Assembly (NCBI GenBank): GCA_963402885.1
Contig: OY727093.1
Span: 5,963,501-6,027,500 of the forward strand
Origin: Antedon bifida
Lineage: Eukaryota; Echinodermata; Crinoidea; Comatulida; Antedonidae
Direction: 5' to 3'
DNA: 64,000 nt
Shown: piece by piece, positions 9,451 to 51,220 of the stretch
Layout of the letters: every line of letters starts with the position of its first letter
How positions within the stretch are numbered: the stretch's first letter is position 1
The notes under the pieces: generated by a model
Databases searched by the model: none
The model's input: the letters and a program-made list of their open reading frames with translations, nothing else
What the model was told of the DNA's origin: nothing
Made by a program: the position numbers and the translations under genes

Positions 9451-9586
9451 TAGTATCCCTATTTTAAGTCTAAAAAGGGCCAATCTGGGAAAAAATTAGA
9501 AACAAGTGTTTCTCAACTGATTTGAGTTATATAGGTTCTATATATCCACCAAAAAAAAGTTCCAGTTCATCTGGCCTGGGGAAAGC

Positions 9587-12670: not shown

Positions 12671-12800
12671 GGCGGCTTTCCCCAGGCCAGATGAGCTGGA
12701 ACTTTTTTTTGGTGGATATATAGACCCCATATGACACAAATCAGTTGAGAAACACTTGTTTCTAATTTTTTCCCAGAGAAAGTGTAAAATGGGGATACTA

Positions 12801-24577: not shown

Positions 24578-26200
24578 ACTAGACATGTAACTCGTCACTT
24601 TGACGAGTTTGGTTTTCCGCCGCGCAAGTGGTGCAACATGAACGTGTAACGACGTACCTTACCGTACCGAACATTAAGGGGATAGGTTGAGGACAAAAGG
24701 AAGTGTCCACGTTGGCATTATGACCTGAACTGAAGAATATGATATGTTTTTATTGCTGAATTCTATTATTTTGATTCATATATAGTATACACAGTATAAT
24801 CTGTATCCATATCACATACAGTGTAGAATAGGTGAAATTACGGGACCCGCTATTTATTGCAATTTTTAACATGTTGACGGTTTTAAAATGAAACGCGAAG
24901 GTAGCATTTCCGAAAAGAAATTATCTCAGCAACAACGTATTAGCGTGTAGAAGAAATTTGAATACGTGAAATATTGATGCGCGCTCTTTTAAATGCAATG
25001 AATTATGACGCAAAAGATGAAAATACGACTTTTTTCATTTAACTGGCCATATGATGACGTCACAACATCCGATTGGCAAAATTTTCACATGATTTCGTAT
25101 CTAAAATCCAATAGCTTCCAGAAAACGTTTTAATCGTGATTATCAAATTTTATTCTTACGAGCTATAACAGATTAAAATTTACTGTAAAGATGAAATTAA
25201 TGCCACACGTAATTTAAATTTTTAGGAATGATGACGTCAAAAAAATTAAAATATTTATAATTCATGCGAAAGACAGTTGATTGACCTAGACAATATCAAA
25301 ATTTGGGTGAAAATGGAAAACGGATAAGTGGAGATGCGCTCTATTAAATGTGATGAGCTATGACGAAAGATACAAAAATCCTAAATTTTATATTAGCGTG
25401 GCAATACGATGACGTCACAATGTCCGGTTAGCCATATTAATATATGATCCGATATCTACAACTCATTAACTTCCAGAAAATGTCATCCACAAAAAGTTGA
25501 CCGTCTAGTTTAGAAATTACGACTGTTTAAAAAAAGGCATATTTTAAACGAATTTTTTAACCTTTTCATAAAAAACGCGCGCAAATTGTCCAATTCGACG
25601 TGCTCGTATGACGTATCTTTAAGTCGAAATTGTTTAAAATTTGGTAAAATTACTAGAAAAGGCTGGAAAAACATAAATCACGCGAAAAAAATACGTTTTC
25701 AATGCTACGTGCGCACCGCACACGTAAAAATGTGCGCACGCGTGGGAATTTTTGACATTCTTAAAACGACATGAAACGCGTAGAAAGTTGATTATAAATT
25801 AATTTTGCGCATTTTGAAATTTTAAATGCGCGTGCGCGCGTAACTTTGTGTAAAACACGCAATTTTTTTTCCACAGAAAGTTAGCGCATAATATAAATTA
25901 AACTTTTGCAAAGTTTCAAGTTGAAATGTTATTTGGTTGTCGAGCTATGTTAAATACGAGAAAATCGTTAAATCGCGCGTACGTCACGTTGCGCAATTGT
26001 AAGCATCATGAAAAGCTTCGCTTGACGACGTTACATAAATGTCAAAATGTCAACATAGTTAAAAAAATGTTATGTTTGCAAGTTTTAGAGAAAAGCGTTA
26101 CACAAAAATCATACAGAAAGAAAGAAGATGAAAAAAAAGATGATGATGATGATTTCGTACAATCACAAGAGGTTTTCCTGCAACTTCGTTGCGGAAAACC
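24578..26200 (+). mobile_element. Helentron-like unit 4 (B type, complete)
   Basis: This is the most complete B-type copy. The 5' hairpin is at 24589-24609, followed by GGTTTTCCGC. The 3' end holds a (GAT)n microsatellite, then TACAATCACAAGA, then the hairpin GGTTTTCC...GGAAAACC at 26171-26200. The 5' GGTTTTCCGC is the reverse complement of the final GCGGAAAACC. TGACGTCA sites lie at 25055, 25232 and 25410. No protein gene is present. Confidence 0.8.
26171..26200 (+). terminator. 3' terminal hairpin of unit 4
   Basis: The arms GGTTTTCC and GGAAAACC enclose an inner GCAAC-TTC-GTTGC stem, giving a nearly perfect 30-base palindrome. In rolling-circle elements such a hairpin acts as the replication/transposition stop signal. 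That role is inferred here and does not mean a transcription terminator. Confidence 0.6.
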
Positions 26201-26201
26201 A

Positions 26202-27747
26202 ACTAGACATGTAACTCGTCACTTTGACGAGTTTGGTTTTCCGCCGCGCAAGTGGTGCAACATGAACGTGTAACGACGTACCTTTTAACATTAAGGGATA
26301 GGTTGAGGACAAAAGGAAGTGTTCACGTTGGCATTATGACCTGAACTGAAGAATATGATATGTTGTTATTGCTGAATTCTATTATTTCGATTCATATATA
26401 GTATACACAGTATAATCTGTATCCATATCACACAGTGTAGAATAGGTGAAATTACGGGACCCGCTATTTATTACAAATTTTAACATGTTGACGGTTTTAA
26501 AATGAAATGCGAAGGTAGCAATTTCGGAAGGAAATTATCTCAGCAACAACATATTAACGTCTAGAAGAAATTTGAATACGTGAAATATTGATGCGCGCTC
26601 TTTTAAATGTAATGAATTATGACGCAAAAGATGAAAATACGACTTTTTTCATTTAACTGGCCATATGATGACGTCACAACATCCGATTGGCAAAATTTTC
26701 ACATGATTTCGTATCTACAATCCAATAGCTTCCATAAAACGTTTTAATCGTGATTATCAAATTTTATTCTTACGAGCTATAACAGATTAAAATTTACTGT
26801 AAAGATGAAATTAATGCCACACGTAATTTAAATTTTTAGGAATGATGACGTCAAAAAAATTAAAATATTTCTAATTCATGCGAAAGACAGTTGATTGACC
26901 TAGACAATATCAAAATTTGGGTGAAAATGGAAAACGGATAAGTGGAGATGCGCTCTATTAAATGTGATGAGCTATGACGAAAGATACAAAAATCCTAAAT
27001 TTTATATTAGCGTGGCCATACGATGACGTCACAATGTCCGGTTAGCCATATTAATACATGATCCGATATCTACAACTCATTAACTTCCAGAAAATGTCAT
27101 CCACAAAAAGTTGACCGTGCAGTTTAGAAATTACGACTGTTTAAAAAAAGGCATAATTTTGACGAATTTTTTAACTTTTTCAACAAAAACTCGCGCAAAT
27201 TGTCCAATTCCACGTGCTCGTATGACGTTAATGTAAGTCGAAATTGTTTAAAAGTTGGTAAAATTACTAGAAAAGGCTGGAAAAACATAAATCACGCGAA
27301 AAAAATATGTTTTTAATGCTACGTGCGCACCGCACACGTAAAAATTTGCGCACGCGTGGAAATTGTTTACATGCTTAAAACGACATGAAACGCGTAGAAA
27401 GTTGATTAGAAATTAATTTTGCGCATTTTGAAATTTTAAATGCGCGTGCACGCGTAACTTTGTGTAAAACACGCAATTTTTGTTCAACAGAAAGTTAGCG
27501 CATGATATAAATTAAACTTGTGCAAAGTTTCAATTTAAAATGTTATTTGGTTTTTGACCTATGTTAAATACGAGAAAATCGTTAAATCGCGCGTACGTCA
27601 CGTTGCGCAATTGTAAACATCATGAAAAGCTTCGCTTGACGACGTTACATAAATGTCAAAATGTTAACATAGTTCACAAAATGTTATGTTTGCAAGTTTC
27701 AGAGAAAAGCGTTACACAAAAATCATACAGAAAGAAAGAAGATGAAA
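26202..27747 (+). mobile_element. Helentron-like unit 5 (B type, interrupted near 3' end)
   Basis: The unit starts with ACTAGACATG and the 5' hairpin at 26213-26233, then TTGGTTTTCCGCC. TGACGTCA sites lie at 26669, 26846 and 27024. It is interrupted at GAAGATGAAA by unit 6. Its likely 3' tail reappears at 29349-29417 beyond unit 6. Confidence 0.8.
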
Positions 27748-36212: not shown

Positions 36213-36969
36213 ACCGTATAAAAAGCAAAACATTTTTAAACATTTTAATTTTCAATTTATTAAAAAAAAACACCTTTAACGTTATTTTGGATCTGGAAAT
36301 TTTAAAGTAATAATACCCAAATCTACAGGACAAAAGATAAATCATTTTATCAACAAGTACAAATAAGGCTCAGAAAATGGCTGCCTTTGACACAATAAGA
36401 ACAAGGCCTGACAAACACTCGTTACGATATTAAAATTTATAGCGACGCCAGATTAGACAATTTCTCTGATGTCGAATTCTGTAAATAATTAATAAGGCTT
36501 TTTTTTTCTTGAAGCTCATTGGGTCACAAGAACTTTTTATTTTAAAGTTGTTTGGTTGTTTAGTGTGTCAATACCCGAAAATGTCACTTTGGTTTTATTG
36601 TTGCGTACAATCTGCACATGTGTGTACATCGTGGGAATTGTAATAATTATGTTTAACGAATACTGCACTTTACTTAGGGCCAATATGGTAAACTGTTCTT
36701 TATTCGTTCGAAATTGTTTCTGGATAATAGTTGATGCAATTCAGAAATTATAACTACTGTAATATAGGCTTAAGATTGGTATTAAATTGTGCTGATTTGT
36801 TTATTGTTATGTGTTTGTATCTATAGAACCGTCTGATTTGAAACTAACAGAAGATATTTATGAATGAAATAGTGTACAGTATATGATACTTCCTTAACTT
36901 ATCCATAAAAATGAAAATGCTATTAAATAGTAATATTATAAGAGACGAAAATAAAATTTTTCATTACAG

Positions 36970-37309
36970 AGAGCAATGGGAGGGATGCATCATATATCAG
37001 CCATGGCCTACAATCCTCACACCGTACATCAGACCTCGATGCAATACCAGCCAGAATGGGGTATACCAAGCACGATGCCCACGGGCACGACGGCACACAC
37101 CGTCACCGCACATACGGGTATACCACCAGGAATGGGGTTGTGTCACCCCATACACAGCAATGAATATCTATCATCACCCCCTCAGTTAGAAAGCAGTAAA
37201 GCACGGGACGTGGATTCCTCACATCATGATGTCGATGACTTATCGGTATCTACGAGTCCAGGCGGCGGGATCGATAGTGACGGAGCTTCATCACCGACTA
37301 AAACAAACG
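36970..37309 (+). CDS. Meox: MEOX/Mox homeobox protein, exon 2
   Basis: This internal exon codes about 113 residues, starting RAMGGMHHISAMAYNPH and ending SSPTKTN. It is rich in His, Pro, Thr and Ser with an Asp/Ser patch (SSHHDVDDLSVS) near the end, as in the low-complexity N-terminal activation region of MEOX proteins. The acceptor CATTACAG keeps phase 0 from exon 1. The donor G-GTTAGT gives phase 1, which fits exon 3 exactly. The frame would hit a stop two bases past the donor (TAG at 37312), which supports the splice site. This region of Mox proteins is poorly conserved, so the assignment depends on splice phase, position and composition. Confidence 0.85.
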
Positions 37310-39617
37310 GTTAGTAAACATTTAACTACCATACGACATTAAAAAAATACAAGTACCAACGAAAGTAATTGTACAGTATTTCTTAACGTTTATTTTACGT
37401 TTGCCAGAAACACTTTGTGTATGAGAGGGTACAGTGGTAAATCCAACATTTTAAAATAGAGGGAACAGTGCTTAATTTGTAAATTGAGGTGATGAGATCT
37501 ATCTTTTGCATTTCTTGTTTCGAAATTAGGAGGTGTGTGGGGGTGCCCGCCTATGAATGGGGAACTATCGTTAACTATTGTCTCCCTATTCTCGGTCTCT
37601 CTCTCTCATACGGATAATGTAGTACGGTGTATGATATTTTAAGTTTCCTTATCAATATGAAACTATTCATGTGCGAATACAGAAGCTGGATAATACAGGA
37701 AACCAATTGAAATTGTAAAACGGAAATCGAAGTTTCTGCATCTATCTATCCATTGAAATTTAAGTCTATAGTATTTAGAGTGAATTTATAATTAAAGGTT
37801 GATTATTTAGTAGTGCTATAAAACTCTTGAGTGAGACAAAAACCATATTTGGCCTATAACATAGCAAGACCCCTTATCGTTTAATTCATGCTTGCTGACG
37901 ATCATCTGGGATTTTGAGGAAAAAACATTTTTTTAAACGAGTGTTTAGCTTTAAAGTAAATGCTAGTTTCCGTATACTGTATAGGCCTATATCTTTTATT
38001 TCAATTCACGCAGCTACATAAAAATGAAACTGTGAATATTTAAAGTATTAATATTAACAAATTAATTGAAAATGTATGATTTGTTGTTGTCTAAAAAGTA
38101 TCGTAGTAAAAATGACCTTCCAGTTATAAATAACTCAAACCAGGAGTTGTGTTTGGAAAATCGTTTTCATAATTTTTTTTATCAAAATGAAGTGTTCCGC
38201 ACTTGATGCCTATTTTAATGTTAATGGATTGAAAAGCGCACAGAACTGACAGTTTTAACATAAGGTTCATGAACTTCGTAGATCATTAAATCACATTCCT
38301 CATCGACGATAGTCCAATCGGGTTCACAGAAACACCATGAACATATTCGTATTAATCCCCCAGAACCCCAGAGGTATCTACAGACAAAGCCGACTTTATC
38401 GTCCGAAAGCGTTCGCGACACATGTGCAGCCCGAATGCAATTCGATTGTTATCGTTGACTTGGCCTTTTTGTGTTAAAAGTTTGATATTTTATTTTATGA
38501 ACAAACGTACCGGCGTTATCTTTGCCGTTTGATTGGCTGATTCATCTTCACAATTTACGTAGAGTACATTGCACGCTCGAGTTAAGAAGAGTGTGCAAAA
38601 CGGTAGGCTAGGGAAAAAAACCCAATATAAACTCCACTTCGCGGTCAAATTCCGAGCGCCGTATTTTTTAATGGGCCAAGCCATTTGATTTAGAATAGAA
38701 GCGGCAAATACAAACGAATACAAATAGGTGTGTTTGAAACATAATAAATGGTGGAATAGACAGATTATTTACATTCATTGATTAGTTATTTCCGTTTTCC
38801 AAGTAAAAAATAGTCTCTCCATTGCACTCAAAAACATTGACCATTAATTTTGTATAATATAAAAATAAAGCCAACTTTGTAAATTGACCCTTTAATAACC
38901 CTTCTTGTGGAAAATCTCGATTTTGATTCCTGGCATCCGGATCGCGCGCATTTGGTAGGAAAGTAGGACATCCATACAGAGGACACGAATTGTGAACCGG
39001 AAGTACTTCAACGCGTACACAATGATCCAATGCCTTTTGTTGAGCATAAAGGTCCTTGGTGCCTTCGATGTTAAGGCAGAGATAAGATAAAACCAAAGTC
39101 AATCAAAAGTGTATTGGCCAGAAAGGGGACAGAAACCCCAATAACGAATACCCTCTGCCGCCTTACTCATAGGCGCATTATCTTTGAAGTTTGTGTTCGA
39201 CGCAGGATGGGGCTCTTTTTGCTTGCATAATGCTTCCTTTTGTTACACCGCAAGTTATCGGGGTCATTGATCAGACATGCGCAGATAATATAATCAGTAC
39301 ATATAATGCCTACACCTGTTTTCATTGTATTTACACCCAGTTCGCTTACATAGATATTTGGGAAGACCCATGTATAGCCGGAGTTAACGCAACTCAACGT
39401 CCATTCTGAAAGACGAGATACGAATGCAACCATTTGACCTATCGCAAGATTAGTCAAGTAAAGGTTCTTCGATGCTGCTCTCGATTGATCTTTCAGTGGG
39501 TGAGAGTTAGTCGCCAATGAACGGTCTAATATTGTCAGACCGGCAGCCCCGAGAAATTTGGTCGAATGCGAACTAGTAGTAGTCTAGGTTCTAGATCGAA
39601 ATTAGTAAGAAGATAAA

Positions 39618-39623
39618 TATTTT
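39618..39623. repeat. left target-site duplication (TATTTT)
   Basis: TATTTT directly precedes the left inverted repeat and is matched by TATTTT at 51215-51220 after the right one. A 6-bp duplication is the Polinton standard. Confidence 0.95.
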
Positions 39624-39657
39624 AGTAGAGGGGTATACGGTATAGTCAGTCGTGATT

Positions 39658-40060
39658 ATAACAATGGTTAACAATGGGGATGGTATAAGACAATAGAGTA
39701 TATCATTTGATGAATTAGTTGCTTGTGAACAATTGGTTTACAATGGTTGAAGTCAATAGGTGTTATGTTTGGGATATAATAATACAATGGTTAACATTGG
39801 GTAAGGATGTAAAGGATTGTTGGCGGTAATTTTAAAAAGGGTACAATAAAGATGCACCTGGTTAATTAAAACTAGTTAATTGAGGTATTTGCTTGTTGTA
39901 TGCCGACATAATCCAAAGACATAAGTTATTTGATCCGGATATTATAACAATGACTAAAACAAAAAGATAACAATGAATGAAGTTATTTAATAAGTATGTC
40001 TTGATTGAACTATACCGACAGGTAATTAACCATCTTCCGGATTTGATAACAAAGGGGAGA
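39658..40060. repeat. subterminal iterated AACAATG motifs
   Basis: AACAATGG/AACAATGA-type motifs recur inside the TIR end at about 39659-39680 (doubled, ATAACAATGGTTAACAATGG), 39738-39748, 39783-39800, 39944-39952 and 39967-39976, with a variant at 40045. The mirror copies lie at about 50778-51180. They could bind the integrase or replication proteins. This is an inference from position only. Confidence 0.5.
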
Positions 40061-40274
40061 AACACAGGGTGTTTGACATACTAAAGTTTAATGTGTGACG
40101 TCATGATGTTACTTTCACTATTTTTTTGATGATTTTTGTTTTCCAATGTTTAGTTTTATTTTCATTTAAATTGGTTACGTTTACGAAAAGATTTCTTTGT
40201 TTCCTTTTAAAATAAAACAAAAAGAGGGGTAAAGAGGGACGCTACTGACATCATGCATAAATTATTTTAATGTG

Positions 40275-40312
40275 TATAAATATATGGGTAAGTTTATAGT
40301 GAACTCATCAGT
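40275..40312 (+). promoter_or_regulatory. TATA box and initiator of the PC4-like gene (left arm)
   Basis: TATAAATA at 40275-40282 lies about 33 bp before a TCAGT initiator-like motif (40308-40312), which is about 75 bp before the ATG at 40384. This is a normal Pol II core-promoter arrangement. The mirror copy has its TATA at 50556-50563. Confidence 0.6.
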
Positions 40313-40383
40313 ACCAGTTTTACAACGCACTAAACTCACTTCTACATTCTTGATTAAGAGAATTTAGTACAGTTTTCATCAGC

Positions 40384-40911
40384 ATGAACTTCTACAAACC
40401 AACAGCTGATTACACCGATTCTAAATTAGCTGATAAGGCTAAGGCTACTATGCAGCGAGTTATGAGGTCTAGCAAGAGACAGAGAGTAGAAGATGAACCA
40501 AATACAAGCGCTTCTTTTCAACAAGATTGTCGACCGGTGGTAAAGAATCACTTTTTTAAGAATGATAGTCGAATTACAGTTACAGCTACTAAACGTATTA
40601 AACTTAGTGAAACGAGGCACGTCGTTGCTCAACGTTGGGGTGATGATATGTACGTATGTATCCGAGAATACTATCAATCAGAACCAGATGGTAAATTTAA
40701 ACCTGGGAAGAAAGGTATTAATTTAACATTGATGCAGTGGAGAGATCTAATGGAGCAAAAGGACATGGTCGATGAAATGTTTTTAGAATTGGATGGATTT
40801 GACGATTGTGGAACCGGTGTAGACATGAATGACAATGGAATGCCAGAAACACAAATGACCAAAAAAAGCTACAAGAATGACAATTACGATTGGTTAGAAC
40901 AGTTCCCGTAA
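40384..40911 (+). CDS. PC4/Sub1-like ssDNA-binding protein (left TIR copy)
   Basis: A 175-residue protein. Residues about 71-135 match the transcriptional coactivator PC4 (p15/Sub1) fold: a strand with VAQRWGDDMYVCIREYY (residues 81-97), then KPGKKGINLTLMQWRDLME (106-124), which carries the PC4 hallmark KPGKKGI-L---QW. The N-terminal part is basic with a KRQR cluster (31-34), a possible nuclear signal. The C-terminus is acidic (ELDGFDD, 134-140). PC4 family proteins bind single-stranded DNA and stimulate Pol II transcription. In this element it could coat replicating ssDNA or help transcription; either is inference. It sits first in each TIR behind a TATA box, so the element has two identical copies. 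It is not one of the standard Polinton core genes. Confidence 0.85.
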   Translation: MNFYKPTADYTDSKLADKAKATMQRVMRSSKRQRVEDEPNTSASFQQDCRPVVKNHFFKNDSRITVTATKRIKLSETRHVVAQRWGDDMYVCIREYYQSEPDGKFKPGKKGINLTLMQWRDLMEQKDMVDEMFLELDGFDDCGTGVDMNDNGMPETQMTKKSYKNDNYDWLEQFP

Positions 40912-41443
40912 TTACATTGTAATCTTTTAGAAAACGGAACGGATTGATGATCTTGAATTGAACAATTTTGGAAATGGGAGTACCCACTTTGAATGTGCAT
41001 TTAAACATTTTAACCTGCGTGTTATTTTTTTTTGGTGTGGTTTTTTCAGTACTAAATAACATGCTAGTGTATTTGTAAAAGTAATTAAAAAAAAAAAAAA
41101 AAAAATAATTTAAATTATCATTTGAATTAATTTGTTATTTCTTCATTTCTATTTAAAAGTTATTTTAAAATAAATTTAAATGTTTTTTGAGTTAATGTAT
41201 TTTGTTCTTTCTGTCTAAATAATATGTTAGTGTATATATAAAACTATTTTTTTTCTCTATTTAATTGTTATTATGTATTTTGAATTTTATGTTTTTTAAA
41301 GTGTATTGCGTGTTTTGCAATAGAATGTGTATTGAAATAAATTTTGTTTTTTAACAACAACAACGAAAATGAAATTTGATCTTTGCGTGTTATTTAAGTA
41401 TTTGAATTATTTTTATAATTTTTCATTTGGATGATTGAGGGTA
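40912..41443. other. noncoding gap between PC4-like gene and integrase (left TIR)
   Basis: Very AT-rich with a 19-A run at about 41087-41105. AATAAA at 41336-41341 is a likely polyadenylation signal for the PC4-like transcript. No open frame of note; the mirror gap is at 49392-49926. Confidence 0.6.
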
Positions 41444-42508
41444 ATGAGTATGGATGAGTACTTAAGAAAAGTATATTACGATCCTAAACACCCCGGTAGT
41501 TTTGGTGGTGTGGACCGACTTCATCAAAATGTAAAAGACGATTTAAATATTACCAAGAAACAAGTTCAGGAATGGCTGAGCAATCAAGATACATATACAT
41601 TACATAAACCAATTCAACGAAAATTCAAGAGGAACCGTGTACAAGTAAACGCTATCGATGAACAATGGGAAATGGATTTGGTTGACTTGACTTCATTAAA
41701 ACGTTACAATAAGCAAAATACATTTCTTATAACATGCATAGATGTCTTATCTAAATATGCGTGGGTTATACCGATAAAGAACAAGTCTTCAGATACCGTA
41801 TTAAAAGCTATGAAAAAAATGTTATCAGGTAAAAGAAAACCGATTAAAATTCATACAGATAAAGGTACAGAATTTATAAATAAAAAAGTACAAACGTATC
41901 TGAAATCTAAAGATATACATTTCTTTACGACAAACAACGAAACGAAGGCAAGCATAGTTGAGCGATTCAATAGAACTTTAAAAACGAGAATGTGGAAATT
42001 GTTTACAGCAAACGGTAATAAAAAATATATCGACGCACTTCCTAAATTAGTTTCCAGTTACAATAATTCAAAACATAGATCTATAGGAACTGCACCGATT
42101 CTCGTTACAAGCGACAACGAGCACGAAGTGTGGCAGAAATTGTATGGTGAAAGAAAGCATCCGGTAAAACGTTTTAAGTTTAAAGTCGGTGATCAAGTGC
42201 GTATCAGTAGATATAAGATGATTTTTGAAAAAGGTTATTTAGCAAACTGGACAGAAGAGATATTCACTGTATTTAAACGTAAAGGAACATCAATGCCAAC
42301 GTATCAAGTAAAGGACTGGAACAATGATATAATCGAAGGAAATTTCTACGAAAAAGAATTACAAAAAGTTTCAAAATCTGATAAAGATGTATATCGCGTC
42401 GAAAAAGTAATTAAAAGGCGAAAGCGTGATGGAAAGACAGAATATTTCGTTAAGTGGTTAGGGTACCCTGCTAAATTCAACAGTTGGGTTCAGAATCTAG
42501 TCAGATAA
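41444..42508 (+). CDS. Polinton integrase, RVE/DDE with chromodomain (left TIR copy)
   Basis: Retroviral-type integrase that joins element ends to host DNA. It has 354 residues from the first ATG (41444); ATG 41450 is an alternative. The N-terminal helical region has PGSFGGVDRLH and DTYTLHKPIQRKF, typical of Polinton integrases. The catalytic triad is D78 (in EMDLVDL), D139 (in HTDKGTEF) and E173 (in KASIVERFNRTLK). The C-terminal residues about 315-350 form a chromodomain (YRVEKVIKRR...EYFVKWLGYP...SWV), which could target modified chromatin. The stop is 11 bp before the minor-capsid ATG. An identical copy lies at 48327-49391 on the opposite strand. It appears intact. Confidence 0.95.
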   Translation: MSMDEYLRKVYYDPKHPGSFGGVDRLHQNVKDDLNITKKQVQEWLSNQDTYTLHKPIQRKFKRNRVQVNAIDEQWEMDLVDLTSLKRYNKQNTFLITCIDVLSKYAWVIPIKNKSSDTVLKAMKKMLSGKRKPIKIHTDKGTEFINKKVQTYLKSKDIHFFTTNNETKASIVERFNRTLKTRMWKLFTANGNKKYIDALPKLVSSYNNSKHRSIGTAPILVTSDNEHEVWQKLYGERKHPVKRFKFKVGDQVRISRYKMIFEKGYLANWTEEIFTVFKRKGTSMPTYQVKDWNNDIIEGNFYEKELQKVSKSDKDVYRVEKVIKRRKRDGKTEYFVKWLGYPAKFNSWVQNLVR

Positions 42509-42519
42509 ACACGAGCATC

Positions 42520-43296
42520 ATGTCATCTCAGTTTCACGTCTCACTACCGAGCAATAGTTCATTGAATTATTTTCCTGAAAATACACTTACAAGTTACACT
42601 ACAAAATTAGCCGAGTCGATACGATTAAAAGGCGAGTGGGAAGTTGGTTTAACTGAAATACAGTACCCACATACGTGGTACAATGTAGACGATACAAACA
42701 ATAAAATTTGGGTACGATTAAACGTTTCTCAAATAGAAACAGCAACGATGGAATACAAAATCGAAATTACAAGCGGATATTATAGTTCAGGTTCGAAACT
42801 GATTGATACGATAAACTCTGCTTTAAGAAAAAAGAAGTTGGATGATAACATAAGGTTTAAATTCAATTCTGTATCGGAAAAAGTTAATATTTCAACCGAT
42901 ATTCTGACATCTATAACGTCGTTAGGAGGTATGCAAACGTTATTGGGATTCGACATATCTTCGATTCTATTAAATTCAAATGTTACAGGAAATCATCCGA
43001 TTAATCTTCATCATCGTGTACCTGGTTTATACGTTTATACAGACGTGATCGAACATCAACGAGTTGGAGATGTAAGCGTTCCTTTATTGAGAATTGTACA
43101 AACCAAGGAGAGTCAAATGAGAAACGTTACTTCTCACGAATACATGATGCCTCACTACAAGCGTTTAATAAAAAAAGAAATTGATACCATTTCGATAGAT
43201 ATAAGGAGTGACACTGGTGAGAAAGTATCATTTCAACGTGGGAAGGTTTTAGTGAAGCTTCATTTTCGACAGAGTAGATCATCGCATCTCATTTAA
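42520..43296 (+). CDS. minor capsid protein, penton-like (full-length copy)
   Basis: A 258-residue protein. I chose ATG 42520 (MSSQFHVSLPSNSS), 11 bp after the integrase stop. The N-terminal pattern FHVSLPSNSS...YFPENTLTSYTTKLA...WEVGLTEIQYPHTW is the conserved start of the Polinton minor capsid (predicted single jelly-roll, penton-base-like) family, which would occupy the vertices of the icosahedral shell. It is mostly beta-strand-like with few charged runs, as expected. The gene straddles the TIR edge: bases up to 43124 are inside the left TIR and the last ~57 codons are single-copy. It is followed after 2 bp by the next gene, so it is probably co-transcribed with it. A cut-off second copy is at 47683-48315. 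Confidence 0.8.
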   Translation: MSSQFHVSLPSNSSLNYFPENTLTSYTTKLAESIRLKGEWEVGLTEIQYPHTWYNVDDTNNKIWVRLNVSQIETATMEYKIEITSGYYSSGSKLIDTINSALRKKKLDDNIRFKFNSVSEKVNISTDILTSITSLGGMQTLLGFDISSILLNSNVTGNHPINLHHRVPGLYVYTDVIEHQRVGDVSVPLLRIVQTKESQMRNVTSHEYMMPHYKRLIKKEIDTISIDIRSDTGEKVSFQRGKVLVKLHFRQSRSSHLI

Positions 43297-43298
43297 TC

Positions 43299-43679
43299 AT
43301 GCCTAACGCGTATGAGGATTACTACGTAGGTCAAGCTGGCGGTTTAAGCCTACCTGTATTTCATGGATCATCTAATCAGAGAGGGTACGGATTAGGTGGA
43401 ATGTTGTCTGGTTTGTTTAAAAAAGCTGTACCGCTTTTAAAAAAAGGTGCCAAAACTCTAGGAAAACAAGCGTTACGAACAGGAGCCGAAATAATGGAGG
43501 ATGCTATAAGTGGACAAAATATCAAACAAGCTGTAAAACGTAGAATTACGCAAGCCGGTAAACGAATTGTTTCTCAGAATGGTAACGGAAAAGTGAATAA
43601 AAAGAGAAAGCGAAAAAGCAATGAAGTCAGTCGAAGAAGAACTAAGAGAGCGAGAAGATCCTCCGATATATTTGATTAA
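43299..43679 (+). CDS. small basic core / pVI-pX-like protein
   Basis: A 126-residue protein. The N-terminus has GGLSLPVFHGSSNQRGYG, then GLGGMLSGLFKKAVPLLKKG (33-52), a potentially amphipathic, membrane-active helix, and KTLGKQALRTGAEIMEDAIS. The C-terminal 35 residues are strongly basic (KKRKRKS, RRRTKRARR), suited to DNA or nuclear binding. Polintons and adintoviruses commonly place such a protein next to the capsid genes and compare it with adenovirus pVI/pX, which link capsid and genome or lyse membranes. The exact function is inferred from composition and position. It starts 2 bp after the minor-capsid stop. Confidence 0.7.
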   Translation: MPNAYEDYYVGQAGGLSLPVFHGSSNQRGYGLGGMLSGLFKKAVPLLKKGAKTLGKQALRTGAEIMEDAISGQNIKQAVKRRITQAGKRIVSQNGNGKVNKKRKRKSNEVSRRRTKRARRSSDIFD

Positions 43680-43687
43680 TAATTACT

Positions 43688-45016
43688 ATGGCGTACGTAC
43701 ACAAACAATCTTGCGAATGTTTAAAGTCAGAATTGGATTTGTTTTCTGTTCCACCGACTCAAACAAGTATAACGAAGGGACAATGGGTTCAGTATCATCC
43801 TTTCAATAGTATTACCGATACAGGACCGGTTCAATTTAACATTCAAGGTTCCACCGAAGAATACGTAGATTTATCACAGACTATGTTACGAGTTAAAGTT
43901 AAAATTACAAGAGGCGATGGAACAGATTTGCATGCTGACGATCCTGTCGGACCAACTAATTTACTACTACAGTCCTTATTCAATGAAGTTGACGTTTCTT
44001 TGAATGAGAGATTAATTACTCCATCGAATAACACTTATTCGTACAGAGCGATGATTGAAACCTTGTTAACGTACGGTGCTGACGCGAAGGAAACTCACCT
44101 TACAGGTGGATTGTTTTATAAAGATACAGCGGGTAGAATGGATGTAGCAAATCCAACTTTAGACGATGCTGCTGCGAATCAAGGACTTAAAAAACGATCT
44201 CAGTACATACGAGGAAGTCGATTGGTTGATTTGATAGGACCTATTCATTGCGATATATTCTTTCAAGATCGTATGATGCTTAATGGAGTTGACATTAAAT
44301 TAAAATTGCATCGAAGTAAAAACGCATTCTGTTTGATGTCATCCGATGCGCAAGCTGGTTATAAGTTACAGTTAGAAGATGCATCTATTTACGTACGAAA
44401 AGTGAAACTAAATCCATCTATAGCGCTGGCTCATGCAAAAGCGCTGGAGCGCGGGTCAGCTAAATACCCTCTTCGTCGAGTCGAGGTTAAAACGCTGTCG
44501 ATACCGCGGGGGAACCTTTCCTTTACCCGAGAGTCGCTGTACAACGGGAATCTACCGAAACGCTTAGTGGTAGGATTAGTAGGAACCGACGCTTTCAACG
44601 GTGATTATAGCAAAAATCCATTTAATTTTCAACACTTTAACACCAATTTTATATCCTTATATTTGGACGGTGAGCAAATACCTTGGAAACCATTAAAGCC
44701 TAATTTTGAAGCAAACGGTGAAGGAAGTTATATTTTAGCCTATCAAAGTTTATTCTCCGGATTAAATACATTATTCGACGACACGGGAAATCAAATATCC
44801 AGAGAAGACTACGCCAGAGGATACACGTTGTTTGCATTCGACCTTACACCCGATTTATCAAGCAGTGGACATTTCAATTTAATTAAACACGGCAATATAC
44901 GTCTTGAAATTCAATTTGCTACCGCTTTGGTTGAAACAATTAACGTAATAGTTTATTCAGAATTTGATTCATTAATAGAAATCGATAAGTCTCGTAACGT
45001 AATTTTAGACTTTTAA
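43688..45016 (+). CDS. major capsid protein, double jelly-roll (F54H12.2-like)
   Basis: A 442-residue protein recognised from its N-terminus (CECLKSELDLFSVPPTQTS, residues 9-27) and the blocks VGPTNLLLQSLFNEVDVSLN, LTGGLFYKDTAGRMD and RLVDLIGPIHCDIFFQDR. These belong to the Polinton hexon family known from proteins annotated as F54H12.2-like. The family is predicted to form trimeric double-jelly-roll capsomers building the icosahedral shell, as in adenovirus hexon and virophage major capsid proteins. The length is usual for the family and the frame is uninterrupted. It is placed between the core-like gene (8 bp gap) and the protease (7 bp gap), in a tightly packed morphogenesis block. Confidence 0.92.
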   Translation: MAYVHKQSCECLKSELDLFSVPPTQTSITKGQWVQYHPFNSITDTGPVQFNIQGSTEEYVDLSQTMLRVKVKITRGDGTDLHADDPVGPTNLLLQSLFNEVDVSLNERLITPSNNTYSYRAMIETLLTYGADAKETHLTGGLFYKDTAGRMDVANPTLDDAAANQGLKKRSQYIRGSRLVDLIGPIHCDIFFQDRMMLNGVDIKLKLHRSKNAFCLMSSDAQAGYKLQLEDASIYVRKVKLNPSIALAHAKALERGSAKYPLRRVEVKTLSIPRGNLSFTRESLYNGNLPKRLVVGLVGTDAFNGDYSKNPFNFQHFNTNFISLYLDGEQIPWKPLKPNFEANGEGSYILAYQSLFSGLNTLFDDTGNQISREDYARGYTLFAFDLTPDLSSSGHFNLIKHGNIRLEIQFATALVETINVIVYSEFDSLIEIDKSRNVILDF

Positions 45017-45023
45017 AAAAATC

Positions 45024-45551
45024 ATGGATACTGTGCAACTTTTAAAATTAGTTAAATCTGATCCATTAACTCAAAGATACTTTCGAGGTGTATATCCTTC
45101 AGATTTGTTACCTAAAAGAATAAAAAGTTACCCTAGTGCTTACATAGCAAATGTTGATGATAGTAGTCAAAACGGTTCGCATTGGGTCGCTTTTTTTCTA
45201 AACAATATTAACGAAGGTGAATTTTTTGATTCATTCGGACATTCGCCTCAATATTACAGTAATCATTTTGTAAATTTTCTAAATCGTACGGTAAACACGT
45301 GGACTTTTAATGATACGGGTTTACAGGCTCCATTGTCGACCGTCTGTGGTCAATATTGTATTTTTTATATTGTTCATAAATGTAGAGGTATTGACACCTC
45401 AAATATAGTTAATATGTTCACTAAAGATAAGAATACTAACGATGCACATGTTAATGATTTTGTAGAACGTAGATACGATGTTAACCTACCGGTGTATGAT
45501 AAGGAGTATATAAAAATACAATTTGTCAAAATGTTAACTAACATATTTTAA
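45024..45551 (+). CDS. adenain-like cysteine protease
   Basis: A 175-residue maturation protease expected to cleave capsid and core precursors. The catalytic residues line up with adenovirus protease: H53 (GSHWVAFF), D69 (FFDSFG), Q101 (TGLQAP) and C108 (TVCGQYC). The Q-to-C spacing of 7 is the same as in adenain, and His-to-Asp is 16. The N-terminal region with DLLP...YIANVDDSS is also typical of Polinton proteases. It is the last gene of the + strand block, 7 bp after the major capsid gene. It appears intact. Confidence 0.93.
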   Translation: MDTVQLLKLVKSDPLTQRYFRGVYPSDLLPKRIKSYPSAYIANVDDSSQNGSHWVAFFLNNINEGEFFDSFGHSPQYYSNHFVNFLNRTVNTWTFNDTGLQAPLSTVCGQYCIFYIVHKCRGIDTSNIVNMFTKDKNTNDAHVNDFVERRYDVNLPVYDKEYIKIQFVKMLTNIF

Positions 45552-45732
45552 TTAAGTATTGTCTTTTTCATATTGGTATTAAAATTTAAATGTTGAAAAA
45601 AAAAAAAATATGTGTATGTATCTTTATTACGCGTTGGTTAGTAAATAATGAAAGAAAGAAAACAACAAACAACGAAATAAATTTGAATAATGAATACATT
45701 TAATAACTGAAAAAAACATTTTATAAAATTGA
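45552..45732. terminator. convergent 3' region between the two gene blocks
   Basis: This 181-bp AT-rich gap separates the protease stop (+) from the stop of the - strand block. It has ATTAAA-like sequence and a run of 13 A (about 45596-45608). CTTTATTA at about 45621 reads as AATAAA on the - strand. It probably holds polyadenylation signals for both blocks. Confidence 0.45.
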
Positions 45733-46494
45733 TTAGAATCCAAGCCATTTCGGTTTAGTTTTAGTACGTTTCTTTTTAGTAATAGTATATTTTTTATCTT
45801 CATCGTCATCGTCGTCATCAAATCTTTCAAGTCGTTTAGATTTTGTAGATGTGGTTTTTGAAAGAGGGCTTATTTCACCAGATTTTAGACGTTGCAACAT
45901 GTTGCGTCGTGTAGCATTTCCAATCAAACTTTCTGGCGTGTTCAACTTCGCCAACACCGATATAAATTCTTTCCACCCCACTGGTTCAAATCCTCGCCTT
46001 TCTTGTATCATATCTTTGGTTAAATCAAATAAATTACTACCCTTTAGCAATTCTCCTTCGATGATCATTTCACCGTATTTTGTCCAATCTAAAATACCCA
46101 TATTTCTGTATCGGTCTATTCGATCTAAAAATGTCTTAGTTTTTGATTTTAACGATATAGGCATGCTTTGCAATACTTCTTTTGTCATCGAATCATCCTT
46201 GATTGCTTCTGTCGATTCATCATTCTTGTCTTCGTCATTAAGAGGTCCATGCATATTTATGTTCATAGGTGAAGGGTTGTTAACGGGCTTCTCTTTATTT
46301 AAAAAACGCTGAAGTACTTGATTGTACATTGTGATTTTATCGTGATCGCTAATATCCTGTCTATTAAGAATAGTCTGCATAGAGTCATCTAATCCGTTAG
46401 TTATTGTTTTGTGCTTTTGTTCATAGTGCTTGCTATGTAGCAATGTATTTGCCAATTCTTGAGGAACTACAATCAATTTTTTTGTGTGCTCCAT
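45733..46494 (-). CDS. conserved Polinton protein of unknown function (253 aa)
   Basis: A 253-residue protein. The N-terminus KKLIVVPQELANTLL and the region DDSMQTILNRQDISDHDKITMYN followed by QVLQRFLN resemble a protein found in many Polintons, recognised here by pattern and not by a named domain. It has a central Asp/Glu-rich linker, then a globular-looking stretch with FLDRIDRYRNMGILDWTKYG, and a C-terminal acidic run (FDDDDDDEDKK) followed by a Lys-rich tail. It has no catalytic motif that I recognise. It is the last gene of the - strand block, one base from the upstream gene's stop (46496). It is possibly a virion or DNA-associated protein; the role is unknown. Confidence 0.65.
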   Translation of the reverse strand: MEHTKKLIVVPQELANTLLHSKHYEQKHKTITNGLDDSMQTILNRQDISDHDKITMYNQVLQRFLNKEKPVNNPSPMNINMHGPLNDEDKNDESTEAIKDDSMTKEVLQSMPISLKSKTKTFLDRIDRYRNMGILDWTKYGEMIIEGELLKGSNLFDLTKDMIQERRGFEPVGWKEFISVLAKLNTPESLIGNATRRNMLQRLKSGEISPLSKTTSTKSKRLERFDDDDDDEDKKYTITKKKRTKTKPKWLGF

Positions 46495-46495
46495 T

Positions 46496-46822
46496 TTATT
46501 CCAAAAGTAATCCGCCCAGAGTCTGTAATATAGGTTTCAAAATAAGACCAAGAAATCCTCCCTTTTGAAGTAGTATACGCTTACGTCGAAGCGTAGGTAT
46601 AGCTTTATTGGAAATATCACGCAAGTGTTTCCTATGCTTCGCCAACTTCTTCTTATGAGCACTAGACACCGGTACACTACCTTTTAAGATGTTCTTTGCA
46701 CACTCACAGATTGCTGTTACTAATTGACTGTCGGCATTCTCAAGCAGGGCCTTTCTTTGTTTAGGCGTACATTTAGCTAAAAACTTTAAAGTTTCTGCGT
46801 TCTTTTTGATACGTTTTGACAT
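46496..46822 (-). CDS. conserved small basic Polinton protein (108 aa)
   Basis: A 108-residue, Lys/Arg-rich protein. It contains LKFLAKCTPKQRKALLENA, ICECAKNILKGSVPVS, and a basic stretch HKKKLAKHRKHLRDISNKA, and ends LLQKGGFLGLILKPILQTLG. The KGGFLG plus hydrophobic tail is a recurrent ending in small Polinton/adintovirus proteins and may be an amphipathic or processing segment; GG-containing sites are typical adenain targets. The function is unknown. It is located 48 bp after the ATPase stop and probably on the same transcript. Confidence 0.65.
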   Translation of the reverse strand: MSKRIKKNAETLKFLAKCTPKQRKALLENADSQLVTAICECAKNILKGSVPVSSAHKKKLAKHRKHLRDISNKAIPTLRRKRILLQKGGFLGLILKPILQTLGGLLLE

Positions 46823-46870
46823 GTTGTGAGTTTGTATTGGAATGAATAGAATAATTTCAAATCACATGTG

Positions 46871-47506
46871 TTATACTTTTGGTACGTAAGCGTAATGTTT
46901 ATCTACTGAAAAGATATTTGTTCGTATTCTCATTTCTTCCGACGTATATGGTTTGAGATCAATGAATAAGTATCCGTACGATTCACGCGTAGCGTCATTA
47001 AATGCCTCTTGTAAGAACCGCCCTTTGCCAGGATACATTTGTTTCGATAAATTCAATATTTGCGTTTTATCCCGTGGATTTTTAAAAAGTACGATATAAT
47101 GAGCATTCAAAGTAATGGTACGGATTTCTTTGGAACCGTAGAAGAAATTTTGCATTATAAATATCACTGAAATGTTTCTATGATGAGAGCCTTTGGTAAA
47201 CAAATTAACGACTCTTTTATCGCTACTGCATTCTGTCATCAAATCATCTATAATTACTAAATGATTTTTACTCGAATCAAACGCATCTAATGTTTCGATA
47301 GGTATACCTTCCATAAAACTTATATTTGATACAGCTGTACTTAATTCCGAAAATAAATTCTGATATTCACCATAGCACCATGTAATATCGTCAAAGGGTT
47401 TATTGAAATAATTATTTTCAATCAATTTCCTTACAAAGACGGATTTACCCGAAGATGTCGGACCGCTAATAACTGCGGTGAAAGGTGTTATCAAAGGACT
47501 CGCCAT
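46871..47506 (-). CDS. genome-packaging ATPase (FtsK/HerA, A32-like)
   Basis: A 211-residue P-loop NTPase expected to pump element DNA into the capsid. Walker A is GPTSSGKS (residues 15-22); Walker B is HLVIIDDLM with D87-D88. Further on, SVIFIMQNFFYGSKEIRTIT matches the sensor-like strand with Gln seen in poxvirus A32 and Polinton ATPases. The length is standard for the family. It is the first gene of the - strand block, with a TATA element about 40 bp upstream. It appears intact. Confidence 0.94.
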   Translation of the reverse strand: MASPLITPFTAVISGPTSSGKSVFVRKLIENNYFNKPFDDITWCYGEYQNLFSELSTAVSNISFMEGIPIETLDAFDSSKNHLVIIDDLMTECSSDKRVVNLFTKGSHHRNISVIFIMQNFFYGSKEIRTITLNAHYIVLFKNPRDKTQILNLSKQMYPGKGRFLQEAFNDATRESYGYLFIDLKPYTSEEMRIRTNIFSVDKHYAYVPKV

Positions 47507-47541
47507 TACAATTATGATGGTAATTTAGTTAAATAATTGCG

Positions 47542-47548
47542 TTTTATA
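47542..47548 (-). promoter_or_regulatory. TATA box of the packaging ATPase block
   Basis: On the - strand this reads TATAAAA, 36 bp before the ATPase ATG (47506). That predicts a very short leader. It is the only good TATA match between the ATPase and the right TIR. Confidence 0.5.
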
Positions 47549-47682
47549 ACATCTTATTTGACACGAATTAAAACAATAAAACTGAATCAATGTTTAAAAC
47601 GTAAATCTAAATCTTTATTCATATTAACACTAATGCGTATTTGTTTTTTACATTATGTACAGTAAATTAATCAAAGAAATTA

Positions 47683-48315
47683 TTATTGTACAATTAATAT
47701 AAAATAGATATTTCTCATTTGACTCTCCTTGGTTTGTACAATTCTCAATAAAGGAACGCTTACATCTCCAACTCGTTGATGTTCGATCACGTCTGTATAA
47801 ACGTATAAACCAGGTACACGATGATGAAGATTAATCGGATGATTTCCTGTAACATTTGAATTTAATAGAATCGAAGATATGTCGAATCCCAATAACGTTT
47901 GCATACCTCCTAACGACGTTATAGATGTCAGAATATCGGTTGAAATATTAACTTTTTCCGATACAGAATTGAATTTAAACCTTATGTTATCATCCAACTT
48001 CTTTTTTCTTAAAGCAGAGTTTATCGTATCAATCAGTTTCGAACCTGAACTATAATATCCGCTTGTAATTTCGATTTTGTATTCCATCGTTGCTGTTTCT
48101 ATTTGAGAAACGTTTAATCGTACCCAAATTTTATTGTTTGTATCGTCTACATTGTACCACGTATGTGGGTACTGTATTTCAGTTAAACCAACTTCCCACT
48201 CGCCTTTTAATCGTATCGACTCGGCTAATTTTGTAGTGTAACTTGTAAGTGTATTTTCAGGAAAATAATTCAATGAACTATTGCTCGGTAGTGAGACGTG
48301 AAACTGAGATGACAT
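47683..48315 (-). pseudogene. truncated second copy of the minor capsid gene
   Basis: From its ATG (48315) this is identical in translation to the full copy at 42520 for the first 202 residues. It leaves the inverted repeat at 47711, reads eight unrelated residues and stops. About 57 C-terminal residues of the 258-residue protein are missing, which should remove the last strands of the jelly roll. It is still an open frame and could be expressed as a shortened protein. The break coincides exactly with the inner TIR edge, so it was created by the duplication that made the long TIR. Confidence 0.9.
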
Positions 48316-48326
48316 GATGCTCGTGT

Positions 48327-49391
48327 TTATCTGACTAGATTCTGAACCCAACTGTTGAATTTAGCAGGGTACCCTAACCACTTAACGAAATATTCTGTCT
48401 TTCCATCACGCTTTCGCCTTTTAATTACTTTTTCGACGCGATATACATCTTTATCAGATTTTGAAACTTTTTGTAATTCTTTTTCGTAGAAATTTCCTTC
48501 GATTATATCATTGTTCCAGTCCTTTACTTGATACGTTGGCATTGATGTTCCTTTACGTTTAAATACAGTGAATATCTCTTCTGTCCAGTTTGCTAAATAA
48601 CCTTTTTCAAAAATCATCTTATATCTACTGATACGCACTTGATCACCGACTTTAAACTTAAAACGTTTTACCGGATGCTTTCTTTCACCATACAATTTCT
48701 GCCACACTTCGTGCTCGTTGTCGCTTGTAACGAGAATCGGTGCAGTTCCTATAGATCTATGTTTTGAATTATTGTAACTGGAAACTAATTTAGGAAGTGC
48801 GTCGATATATTTTTTATTACCGTTTGCTGTAAACAATTTCCACATTCTCGTTTTTAAAGTTCTATTGAATCGCTCAACTATGCTTGCCTTCGTTTCGTTG
48901 TTTGTCGTAAAGAAATGTATATCTTTAGATTTCAGATACGTTTGTACTTTTTTATTTATAAATTCTGTACCTTTATCTGTATGAATTTTAATCGGTTTTC
49001 TTTTACCTGATAACATTTTTTTCATAGCTTTTAATACGGTATCTGAAGACTTGTTCTTTATCGGTATAACCCACGCATATTTAGATAAGACATCTATGCA
49101 TGTTATAAGAAATGTATTTTGCTTATTGTAACGTTTTAATGAAGTCAAGTCAACCAAATCCATTTCCCATTGTTCATCGATAGCGTTTACTTGTACACGG
49201 TTCCTCTTGAATTTTCGTTGAATTGGTTTATGTAATGTATATGTATCTTGATTGCTCAGCCATTCCTGAACTTGTTTCTTGGTAATATTTAAATCGTCTT
49301 TTACATTTTGATGAAGTCGGTCCACACCACCAAAACTACCGGGGTGTTTAGGATCGTAATATACTTTTCTTAAGTACTCATCCATACTCAT
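48327..49391 (-). CDS. Polinton integrase (right TIR copy)
   Basis: Identical in translation to the integrase at 41444-42508, with the same catalytic D78, D139, E173 and C-terminal chromodomain. Both copies appear functional, so the element carries integrase in double dose. The start is taken at the corresponding ATG (49391). Confidence 0.95.
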   Translation of the reverse strand: MSMDEYLRKVYYDPKHPGSFGGVDRLHQNVKDDLNITKKQVQEWLSNQDTYTLHKPIQRKFKRNRVQVNAIDEQWEMDLVDLTSLKRYNKQNTFLITCIDVLSKYAWVIPIKNKSSDTVLKAMKKMLSGKRKPIKIHTDKGTEFINKKVQTYLKSKDIHFFTTNNETKASIVERFNRTLKTRMWKLFTANGNKKYIDALPKLVSSYNNSKHRSIGTAPILVTSDNEHEVWQKLYGERKHPVKRFKFKVGDQVRISRYKMIFEKGYLANWTEEIFTVFKRKGTSMPTYQVKDWNNDIIEGNFYEKELQKVSKSDKDVYRVEKVIKRRKRDGKTEYFVKWLGYPAKFNSWVQNLVR

Positions 49392-49926
49392 TACCCTCAA
49401 TCATCCAAATGAAAAATTATAAAAATAATTCAAATACTTAAATAACACGCAAAGATCAAATTTCATTTTCGTTGTTGTTGTTAAAAAACAAAATTTATTT
49501 CAATACACATTCTATTGCAAAACACGCAATACACTTTAAAAAACATAAAATTCAAAATACATAATAACAATTAAATAGAGAAAAAAAATAGTTTTATATA
49601 TACACTAACATATTATTTAGACAGAAAGAACAAAATACATTAACTCAAAAAACATTTAAATTTATTTTAAAATAACTTTTAAATAGAAATGAAGAAATAA
49701 CAAATTAATTCAAATGATAATTTAAATTATTTTTTTTTTTTTTTTTTTTTTAATTACTTTTACAAATACACTAGCATGTTATTTAGTACTGAAAAAACCA
49801 CACCAAAAAAAAATAACACGCAGGTTAAAATGTTTAAATGCACATTCAAAGTGGGTACTCCCATTTCCAAAATTGTTCAATTCAAGATCATCAATCCGTT
49901 CCGTTTTCTAAAAGATTACAATGTAA
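49392..49926. other. noncoding gap between integrase and PC4-like gene (right TIR)
   Basis: Mirror of 40912-41443. It contains the 22-T run near 49730-49751 and the mirrored polyadenylation signal. Small open frames here are reverse-strand shadows of the TIR genes. Confidence 0.6.
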
Positions 49927-50454
49927 TTACGGGAACTGTTCTAACCAATCGTAATTGTCATTCTTGTAGCTTTTTTTGGTCATTTGTGTTTCTGGCATTC
50001 CATTGTCATTCATGTCTACACCGGTTCCACAATCGTCAAATCCATCCAATTCTAAAAACATTTCATCGACCATGTCCTTTTGCTCCATTAGATCTCTCCA
50101 CTGCATCAATGTTAAATTAATACCTTTCTTCCCAGGTTTAAATTTACCATCTGGTTCTGATTGATAGTATTCTCGGATACATACGTACATATCATCACCC
50201 CAACGTTGAGCAACGACGTGCCTCGTTTCACTAAGTTTAATACGTTTAGTAGCTGTAACTGTAATTCGACTATCATTCTTAAAAAAGTGATTCTTTACCA
50301 CCGGTCGACAATCTTGTTGAAAAGAAGCGCTTGTATTTGGTTCATCTTCTACTCTCTGTCTCTTGCTAGACCTCATAACTCGCTGCATAGTAGCCTTAGC
50401 CTTATCAGCTAATTTAGAATCGGTGTAATCAGCTGTTGGTTTGTAGAAGTTCAT
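49927..50454 (-). CDS. PC4/Sub1-like ssDNA-binding protein (right TIR copy)
   Basis: Identical in translation to the copy at 40384-40911, with the same PC4 core (CIREYY and KPGKKGINLTL). It is preceded on its strand by the mirrored TATAAATA (50556-50563). Both copies seem intact. Confidence 0.85.
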   Translation of the reverse strand: MNFYKPTADYTDSKLADKAKATMQRVMRSSKRQRVEDEPNTSASFQQDCRPVVKNHFFKNDSRITVTATKRIKLSETRHVVAQRWGDDMYVCIREYYQSEPDGKFKPGKKGINLTLMQWRDLMEQKDMVDEMFLELDGFDDCGTGVDMNDNGMPETQMTKKSYKNDNYDWLEQFP

Positions 50455-51214
50455 GCTGATGAAAACTGTACTAAATTCTCTTAATCAAGAATGTAGAAGT
50501 GAGTTTAGTGCGTTGTAAAACTGGTACTGATGAGTTCACTATAAACTTACCCATATATTTATACACATTAAAATAATTTATGCATGATGTCAGTAGCGTC
50601 CCTCTTTACCCCTCTTTTTGTTTTATTTTAAAAGGAAACAAAGAAATCTTTTCGTAAACGTAACCAATTTAAATGAAAATAAAACTAAACATTGGAAAAC
50701 AAAAATCATCAAAAAAATAGTGAAAGTAACATCATGACGTCACACATTAAACTTTAGTATGTCAAACACCCTGTGTTTCTCCCCTTTGTTATCAAATCCG
50801 GAAGATGGTTAATTACCTGTCGGTATAGTTCAATCAAGACATACTTATTAAATAACTTCATTCATTGTTATCTTTTTGTTTTAGTCATTGTTATAATATC
50901 CGGATCAAATAACTTATGTCTTTGGATTATGTCGGCATACAACAAGCAAATACCTCAATTAACTAGTTTTAATTAACCAGGTGCATCTTTATTGTACCCT
51001 TTTTAAAATTACCGCCAACAATCCTTTACATCCTTACCCAATGTTAACCATTGTATTATTATATCCCAAACATAACACCTATTGACTTCAACCATTGTAA
51101 ACCAATTGTTCACAAGCAACTAATTCATCAAATGATATACTCTATTGTCTTATACCATCCCCATTGTTAACCATTGTTATAATCACGACTGACTATACCG
51201 TATACCCCTCTACT

Positions 51215-51220
51215 TATTTT
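51215..51220. repeat. right target-site duplication (TATTTT)
   Basis: Second copy of the 6-bp duplication flanking the Polinton. Confidence 0.95.

What the first reader, a model, noticed from the sequence alone, without database searches (positions are those of the whole stretch)
39624..51214. Capsid-coding Polinton without a DNA polymerase and with 3.5-kb gene-bearing TIRs
The element has intact integrase, packaging ATPase, protease, major capsid and minor capsid genes, but nothing that could be PolB, in a total of 11.6 kb. Sixty percent of it is inverted repeat, and each arm carries two complete genes. Canonical Polintons have TIRs of about 0.1-1 kb and one copy of each gene. A likely route is a terminal duplication: one end was copied over the other during strand-displacement or panhandle replication, deleting the PolB-bearing end. 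The result resembles duplicated-end deletion variants of linear protein-primed or hairpin-ended DNA viruses. It could be a packaged satellite that borrows PolB from a full-length relative.
Basis: partly seen in the sequence, partly recalled or inferred. Interest (0 to 1): 0.88.

Follow-up and report, generated by a model that had tools for sequence, protein, structure and literature searches.

The report
Polinton missing its own DNA polymerase
A virus-like mobile element in what looks like a feather-star genome keeps its capsid and integration genes, but its polymerase end appears to have been replaced by a flipped copy of its other end, which suggests it could only be copied with help from a complete relative.

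Summary
The element at 39624-51214 is 11,591 bp. Its inverted arms (3,501 and 3,504 bp) differ only in one A-run, and it lies in a 6-bp target duplication, TATTTT. Twelve gene frames (nine different proteins) fill 74% of it; none can be PolB, and the largest stretch outside them is 760 bp. Its genes, integrase-penton-PW-MCP-protease facing PZ-PM-ATPase, match the published description of vertebrate Mavericks, in which PolB is listed with ATPase and PZ. The right arm begins 204 bp upstream of the ATPase start and cuts a penton copy mid-gene. So the PolB end was probably replaced by an inverted copy of the integrase end. The host is a crinoid, Antedon or a close relative, judged by one protein. 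Best mechanism: a template switch during replication made the PolB-less form, which then integrated. Gap repair after insertion fits the same anatomy. A helper-dependent satellite is possible but untested: the genome search did not complete (17 tries). End replacement has precedents in truncated virophages with regenerated TIRs and in poxvirus repeat expansion. I file it as a new variant of a known kind.

The parts
39618..39623 (.). left copy of the 6-bp target-site duplication TATTTT
39624..43124 (+). left arm of the long terminal inverted repeat (3,501 bp), ending inside the penton gene
40384..40911 (+). PC4-like gene, 175 aa (PF02229, 2.5e-15); candidate single-strand-DNA-binding accessory protein (role inferred)
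41444..42508 (+). integrase, 354 aa from the first ATG, rve core plus C-terminal chromodomain (frame opens at 41435)
42520..43296 (+). probable minor capsid (penton) gene, complete, 258 aa
   Evidence: (DUF5901, below cut-off)
43299..43679 (+). PW-like basic protein, 126 aa, between penton and MCP
43688..45016 (+). major capsid protein, 442 aa, predicted double jelly-roll
45024..45551 (+). adenovirus-type cysteine protease (PF00770), 175 aa
45733..46494 (-). PZ-like protein, 253 aa (named by position)
46496..46822 (-). PM-like protein, 108 aa (named by position)
46871..47506 (-). packaging ATPase, 211 aa (PF04665)
47507..47710 (.). 204 unique bases between the ATPase start and the inner edge of the right arm; all that could remain of the PolB side
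47683..48315 (-). truncated penton copy: 202 shared residues, then 8 different residues and a stop from beyond the junction
47711..51214 (-). right arm of the long terminal inverted repeat (3,504 bp)
48327..49391 (-). second integrase copy, complete
49927..50454 (-). second PC4-like copy, complete
51215..51220 (.). right copy of the target-site duplication TATTTT

Best explanation
This is a PolB-deleted derivative of an animal Polinton (Maverick), young and with its other core genes intact. Shown: arms, duplicated genes, missing polymerase, target duplication, gene order. Inferred: during protein-primed replication of a full-length parent, a growing or broken strand that had reached a point 204 bp upstream of the ATPase start switched to the opposite end. 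It then copied from inside the penton gene outward to the integrase-side terminus. One such event removes the whole PolB end and rebuilds a proper terminus, giving 3.5-kb TIRs. The product keeps both termini, integrase and virion genes. A PolB present in the same cell would have had to copy it, and an integrase put it into the chromosome with a 6-bp duplication.
For: The remaining genes match the two converging modules described for vertebrate Mavericks (PolB, ATPase, PM, PZ against integrase, penton, PW, MCP, protease), with only PolB missing. Penton-PW-MCP order recurs in both distant loci; the protease follows in L001, and ATPase-PM-PZ recurs in L002. The right arm starts on the ATPase side and cuts the penton frame. 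The arms carry no substitution over 3,501 columns, so the event or its last copying is recent. A 6-bp duplication fits integration of the linear form. Precedent: 3 of 33 complete Cafeteria virophage elements are truncated yet flanked by TIRs that 'must have regenerated' (PMC8547959, section 10 read).
Against: No full-length sister with the same ends was found, so PolB's former place, the breakpoint and any microhomology could not be checked. The target duplication would also survive a rearrangement after insertion. With one copy seen, transmission in the PolB-less form is not shown. In the decayed mussel-type locus L002 an integrase-like remnant, not PolB, stands upstream of the ATPase, and its two modules lie on one strand.
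Confidence: 0.55

Rival explanations
1. Repair in the chromosome: a full-length Polinton inserted first; a later break in its PolB end was repaired by copying inward from the left TIR to 43124, and the copy was end-joined 204 bp upstream of the ATPase. It never moved as a PolB-less element.
For: It gives exactly the same anatomy and keeps the TATTTT duplication. The parental TIRs would supply the homology at one end, and the sequences beyond the inner junction do not resemble each other.
Against: No direct evidence against it. The terminal part of the arms shows no more divergence than the inner part (0 substitutions throughout), which only says that the insertion is young.
Confidence: 0.24
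2. Assembly artefact: the right arm is a false inverted copy and the real element has PolB.
For: The arms are almost identical, and no reads were available to check the junctions.
Against: Matching 6-bp target duplication in different flanks; the arms differ in A-run length (19 versus 22), so they are not a literal copy; 4,586 bp separate them, unlike fold-back read chimeras (recalled).
Confidence: 0.08
3. A lineage that naturally has long gene-bearing TIRs and no PolB, replicated by something else.
For: Many protist integrated elements lack a detectable polymerase (PMC10120064, passage). L002 has an integrase-like remnant upstream of its ATPase and no PolB motif A, B or C by pattern search.
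Against: No replicase above cut-off among the 9 different proteins (a VapE-like match of the ATPase, E 0.084, is below cut-off). The penton copy is cut mid-frame, as a fresh rearrangement would leave it. L002 is decayed, its integrase remnants differ from each other, and no long TIRs were found in it.
Confidence: 0.1

Closest known systems
Polinton/Maverick of vertebrates (PMC8097293)
   Same: Core genes, two converging modules, 6-bp target duplication, AGT-type end
   Different: No PolB; 11.6 kb versus 12.7-24.6 kb; TIR 3.5 kb versus 46-1,447 bp; duplicated integrase
Truncated endogenous mavirus-like elements of Cafeteria (PMC8547959)
   Same: Truncated elements that still end in TIRs, said to have regenerated
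   Different: Virophages of a protist; TIRs 0.2-2.3 kb over all 33 elements; the text seen does not say that genes lie in the repeats
Poxvirus inverted-terminal-repeat expansion (PMC10230479, PMC11680203; passages seen)
   Same: One end copied inverted over the other, with loss of genes there
   Different: Not protein-primed (recalled); the passages seen report no loss of the polymerase
Adenovirus and linear-plasmid end-duplicated deletion forms (recalled; one search found no paper on them)
   Same: Protein-primed replicons that form palindromic, helper-dependent derivatives
   Different: Not integrated by an integrase

Membership tests
Polinton/Maverick | rve integrase with chromodomain | tested here: met
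   the presumed catalytic D, D, E are invariant in 25 aligned sequences
Polinton/Maverick | protein-primed PolB | tested here: not met
   hence filed as a deletion derivative, not as an autonomous Polinton
Polinton/Maverick | double jelly-roll major capsid protein | tested here: met
   model pLDDT 78; best PDB matches Sputnik, PBCV-1 and mavirus capsid proteins, E about 4e-14, TM-score 0.54-0.62 on the query
Polinton/Maverick | single jelly-roll minor capsid protein | tested here: inconclusive
   DUF5901 below cut-off; homologues in the same place beside MCP in L001 and L002; structure model failed, pLDDT 29.5
Polinton/Maverick | A32-type packaging ATPase and adenovirus-type protease | tested here: met
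   PF04665 23.3 bits (cut-off 22.8), PF00770 25.9 bits (cut-off 21.3)
Polinton/Maverick | TIRs with 6-bp target duplication | tested here: met
   but the TIR length is outside the published vertebrate range
Polinton/Maverick | (AGT)2 end motif | tested here: inconclusive
   AGTAGA, 5 of 6 positions
Polinton-like virus without PolB | primase-helicase or other helicase in place of PolB | tested here: not met
   no such domain above cut-off in 9 proteins
Helper-dependent satellite | spread in PolB-less form using a relative's polymerase | not tested
   The genome search unanswered 17 of 17 times

The most novel reading that the evidence does not exclude
A lineage of packaged, integrating Polinton satellites in crinoids. 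Losing only PolB through end replacement gave a shorter genome with double integrase dose that spreads in virions by parasitising the PolB of full-length relatives. It would be an animal counterpart of defective-interfering genomes, preserved in the germ line.
Probability: 0.15. Interest if true: 0.85.

Novelty: new variant of a known kind. Interest (0 to 1): 0.5.

Why it matters
Maverick particles had not been observed as of 2021 (PMC8097293, abstract in the listing). An element caught soon after losing one end and rebuilding a terminus would be physical evidence for end-to-end template switching in these elements. It would also make helper dependence testable by counting copies that share this junction.

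Tried and rejected
Relatives in IMG/VR: none by MCP, MCP profile, ATPase or integrase profile; the 2, 13, 4 and 29 stretches that matched a pattern all failed tblastn. Prokaryote contigs: 62 stretches matched, 2 loci confirmed, L001 and L002, both animal DNA inside bacterial MAGs by my reading. L002 is decayed and shows no PolB motif A, B or C, so it cannot place PolB. The rest of the window holds no other piece of the element: one 22-bp blastn match and no tblastn match at E up to 0.1. The penton structure from a single sequence failed. PDB sequence searches: MCP profile none, ATPase and penton none at E up to 1, protease a weak match to cysteine protease S273R, E 0.0015. PHROGs: 3 weak matches, 2 of unknown function and 1 terminase. 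Rfam: no match. No paper holds Maverick, polymerase and Antedon together. A search for PolB proteins in Antedon was not made: I had no PolB query from a call, and the 3 protein searches went to MCP, integrase and the PC4-like protein. Considered and rejected: PC4 or PZ as a replacement replicase (too small, no such domain).

Full report
What is there. The window holds one integrated element at 39624-51214. Two inverted arms of 3,501 and 3,504 bp flank a unique middle of 4,586 bp. The arms align without a single substitution; the only difference is an A-run of 19 versus 22 bases. By my own arithmetic, 0 of 3,501 gives an upper 95% bound of about 0.09% divergence, so the duplication or its last copying is recent. 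The element is flanked by TATTTT on both sides. Two random flanks would share 6 bases with probability about 5e-4.

Genes. Left to right on the plus strand: PC4-like, integrase, probable penton, PW-like, MCP, protease. Facing them on the minus strand: PZ-like, PM-like, ATPase, then the truncated penton, second integrase and second PC4-like gene of the right arm. Pfam supports PC4 (2.5e-15), rve (1.7e-14), chromodomain (6.2e-10), adenovirus protease (9.1e-6) and A32 ATPase (5.1e-5). It leaves penton, MCP, PW, PZ and PM without a family above cut-off. The MCP is identified by its homologues (2,421 proteins at E up to 0.001; 2 of the 120 listed, both from Porites, are named capsid protein) and by a predicted double jelly-roll fold whose best PDB matches are Sputnik, PBCV-1 and mavirus capsid proteins. 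Penton, PW, PZ and PM are supported by tblastn matches in corresponding places in two distant loci: penton-PW-MCP in both L001 and L002, with the protease following in L001 only; ATPase-PM-PZ in L002 only. In L002 both modules lie on one strand, unlike here. The names PW, PZ and PM are given by position, following PMC8097293; no sequence of those families was compared.

Host. The closest MCPs come from crinoids: 98% local identity (95% over the aligned length) to an Antedon mediterranea protein whose gene model lacks pieces (P0001), 83% to two further Antedon clusters, and 87% to Anneissia japonica. The window is therefore probably from Antedon or a close relative; three clusters of related MCPs are recorded for Antedon. 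Host assignment rests on the MCP alone. Of 5,995 integrase hits 120 are listed, most without a name; none of the named ones is from a crinoid, and the best listed is 60% identical. I suspect that annotation pipelines dropped such genes, but I did not test that.

No polymerase. Stop-to-stop frames of 60 codons or more in all six frames show the known genes, frames overlapping them and short non-coding frames; the largest stretch outside the gene frames is 760 bp. PolB motif patterns give no hit within the element. A Polinton PolB needs roughly 3 kb (recalled).

Why the right end is the replaced one. PMC8097293 (section 7 read; its figure is not held) says that in vertebrate Mavericks PolB, ATPase and PZ, with PM between ATPase and PZ, form one module, and integrase, minor capsid, PW, MCP and protease the other, generally on opposite strands pointing to the centre. 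Every one of these except PolB is here in that arrangement. That PolB lies outermost in its module is my reading of the list order plus recall. The left arm runs through its penton gene into PW and MCP without a break, while the right arm stops inside penton and joins unrelated sequence, 204 bp from the ATPase start. So the left end is the source and the right end the copy. Sizes also fall outside the published vertebrate range: 11.6 kb against 12.7-24.6 kb, and TIR 3.5 kb against 46-1,447 bp.

Mechanism. A single template switch during replication explains deletion and long TIR together: the new strand leaves its template near 47711, continues on the other end from 43124, and runs out to the terminus. 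The rival is gap repair in the chromosome from the left TIR followed by end joining. Both keep the target duplication. I could not separate them: the decisive count of this junction in the genome was not possible, because the genome search was unanswered at 17 of 17 attempts. I prefer the replication route because all core genes other than PolB are intact and because truncated relatives with regenerated TIRs are already reported (3 of 33 complete elements, PMC8547959, section 10), but the margin is modest.

A result that does not sit well. In L002, a decayed locus from a mussel-symbiont MAG, a divergent integrase-like remnant (29-37% identity) stands upstream of the ATPase, where I expect PolB, besides the usual integrase, and no PolB motif A, B or C was found in the 21 kb held. 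No long TIRs are there. It may be a rearranged element or a PolB-less one; I could not tell. Because of this, and because PolB's place is inferred, I lowered the best explanation from 0.58 to 0.55 and raised the natural-lineage rival from 0.08 to 0.10 on checking.

Precedents and novelty. Copying one end over the other with loss of genes is documented in poxviruses (PMC10230479 and PMC11680203, passages). My searches (30 of 82 papers listed; 20 of 40; 13 of 13; 20 of 24; 9 of 9; 8 of 71), with passages, showed me no animal Polinton without PolB and with long gene-bearing TIRs. Most of those papers were seen as listings only, and the library lacks most subscription papers, so this is weak evidence of absence. 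I file it as a new variant of a known kind.

Accessory gene. The PC4-like protein has one relative at E below 0.001, among 4 candidates that share exact words, in Anneissia on a 1,697-bp contig, 50% identical over 87%. Its PDB matches are PC4/p15 and MoSub1 chains. A role as the element's single-strand-DNA-binding protein in strand-displacement replication is a guess.

Noticed in passing
window 9585-10097 and 12010-12676: Two tandem arrays of about 151-153-bp units whose consensus units look like reverse complements of each other.
   Followed up: no
window 916-1425: Ten copies of a 51-bp unit with long open frames on both strands.
   Followed up: no
window 25902-26273: Open frame with a weak DUF3504 match, E 5e-4, below the curated cut-off.
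   Followed up: no
window 36955-37314: Open frame rich in His, Pro and Ser with no Pfam match at E up to 0.05; possibly a host exon.
   Followed up: partly
L001 275-3166 and L002 4619-11268: Animal-type Polinton genes inside contigs of bacterial MAGs (Breoghania, Bathymodiolus symbiont), probably contamination.
   Followed up: partly
L002 4619-5613: A second, divergent integrase-like remnant (29-37% identity) upstream of the ATPase, besides the usual one at 7595-8566.
   Followed up: partly
window 40384-40911 and 49927-50454: A PC4-like gene for which the protein search gave a single relative, in another crinoid.
   Followed up: partly
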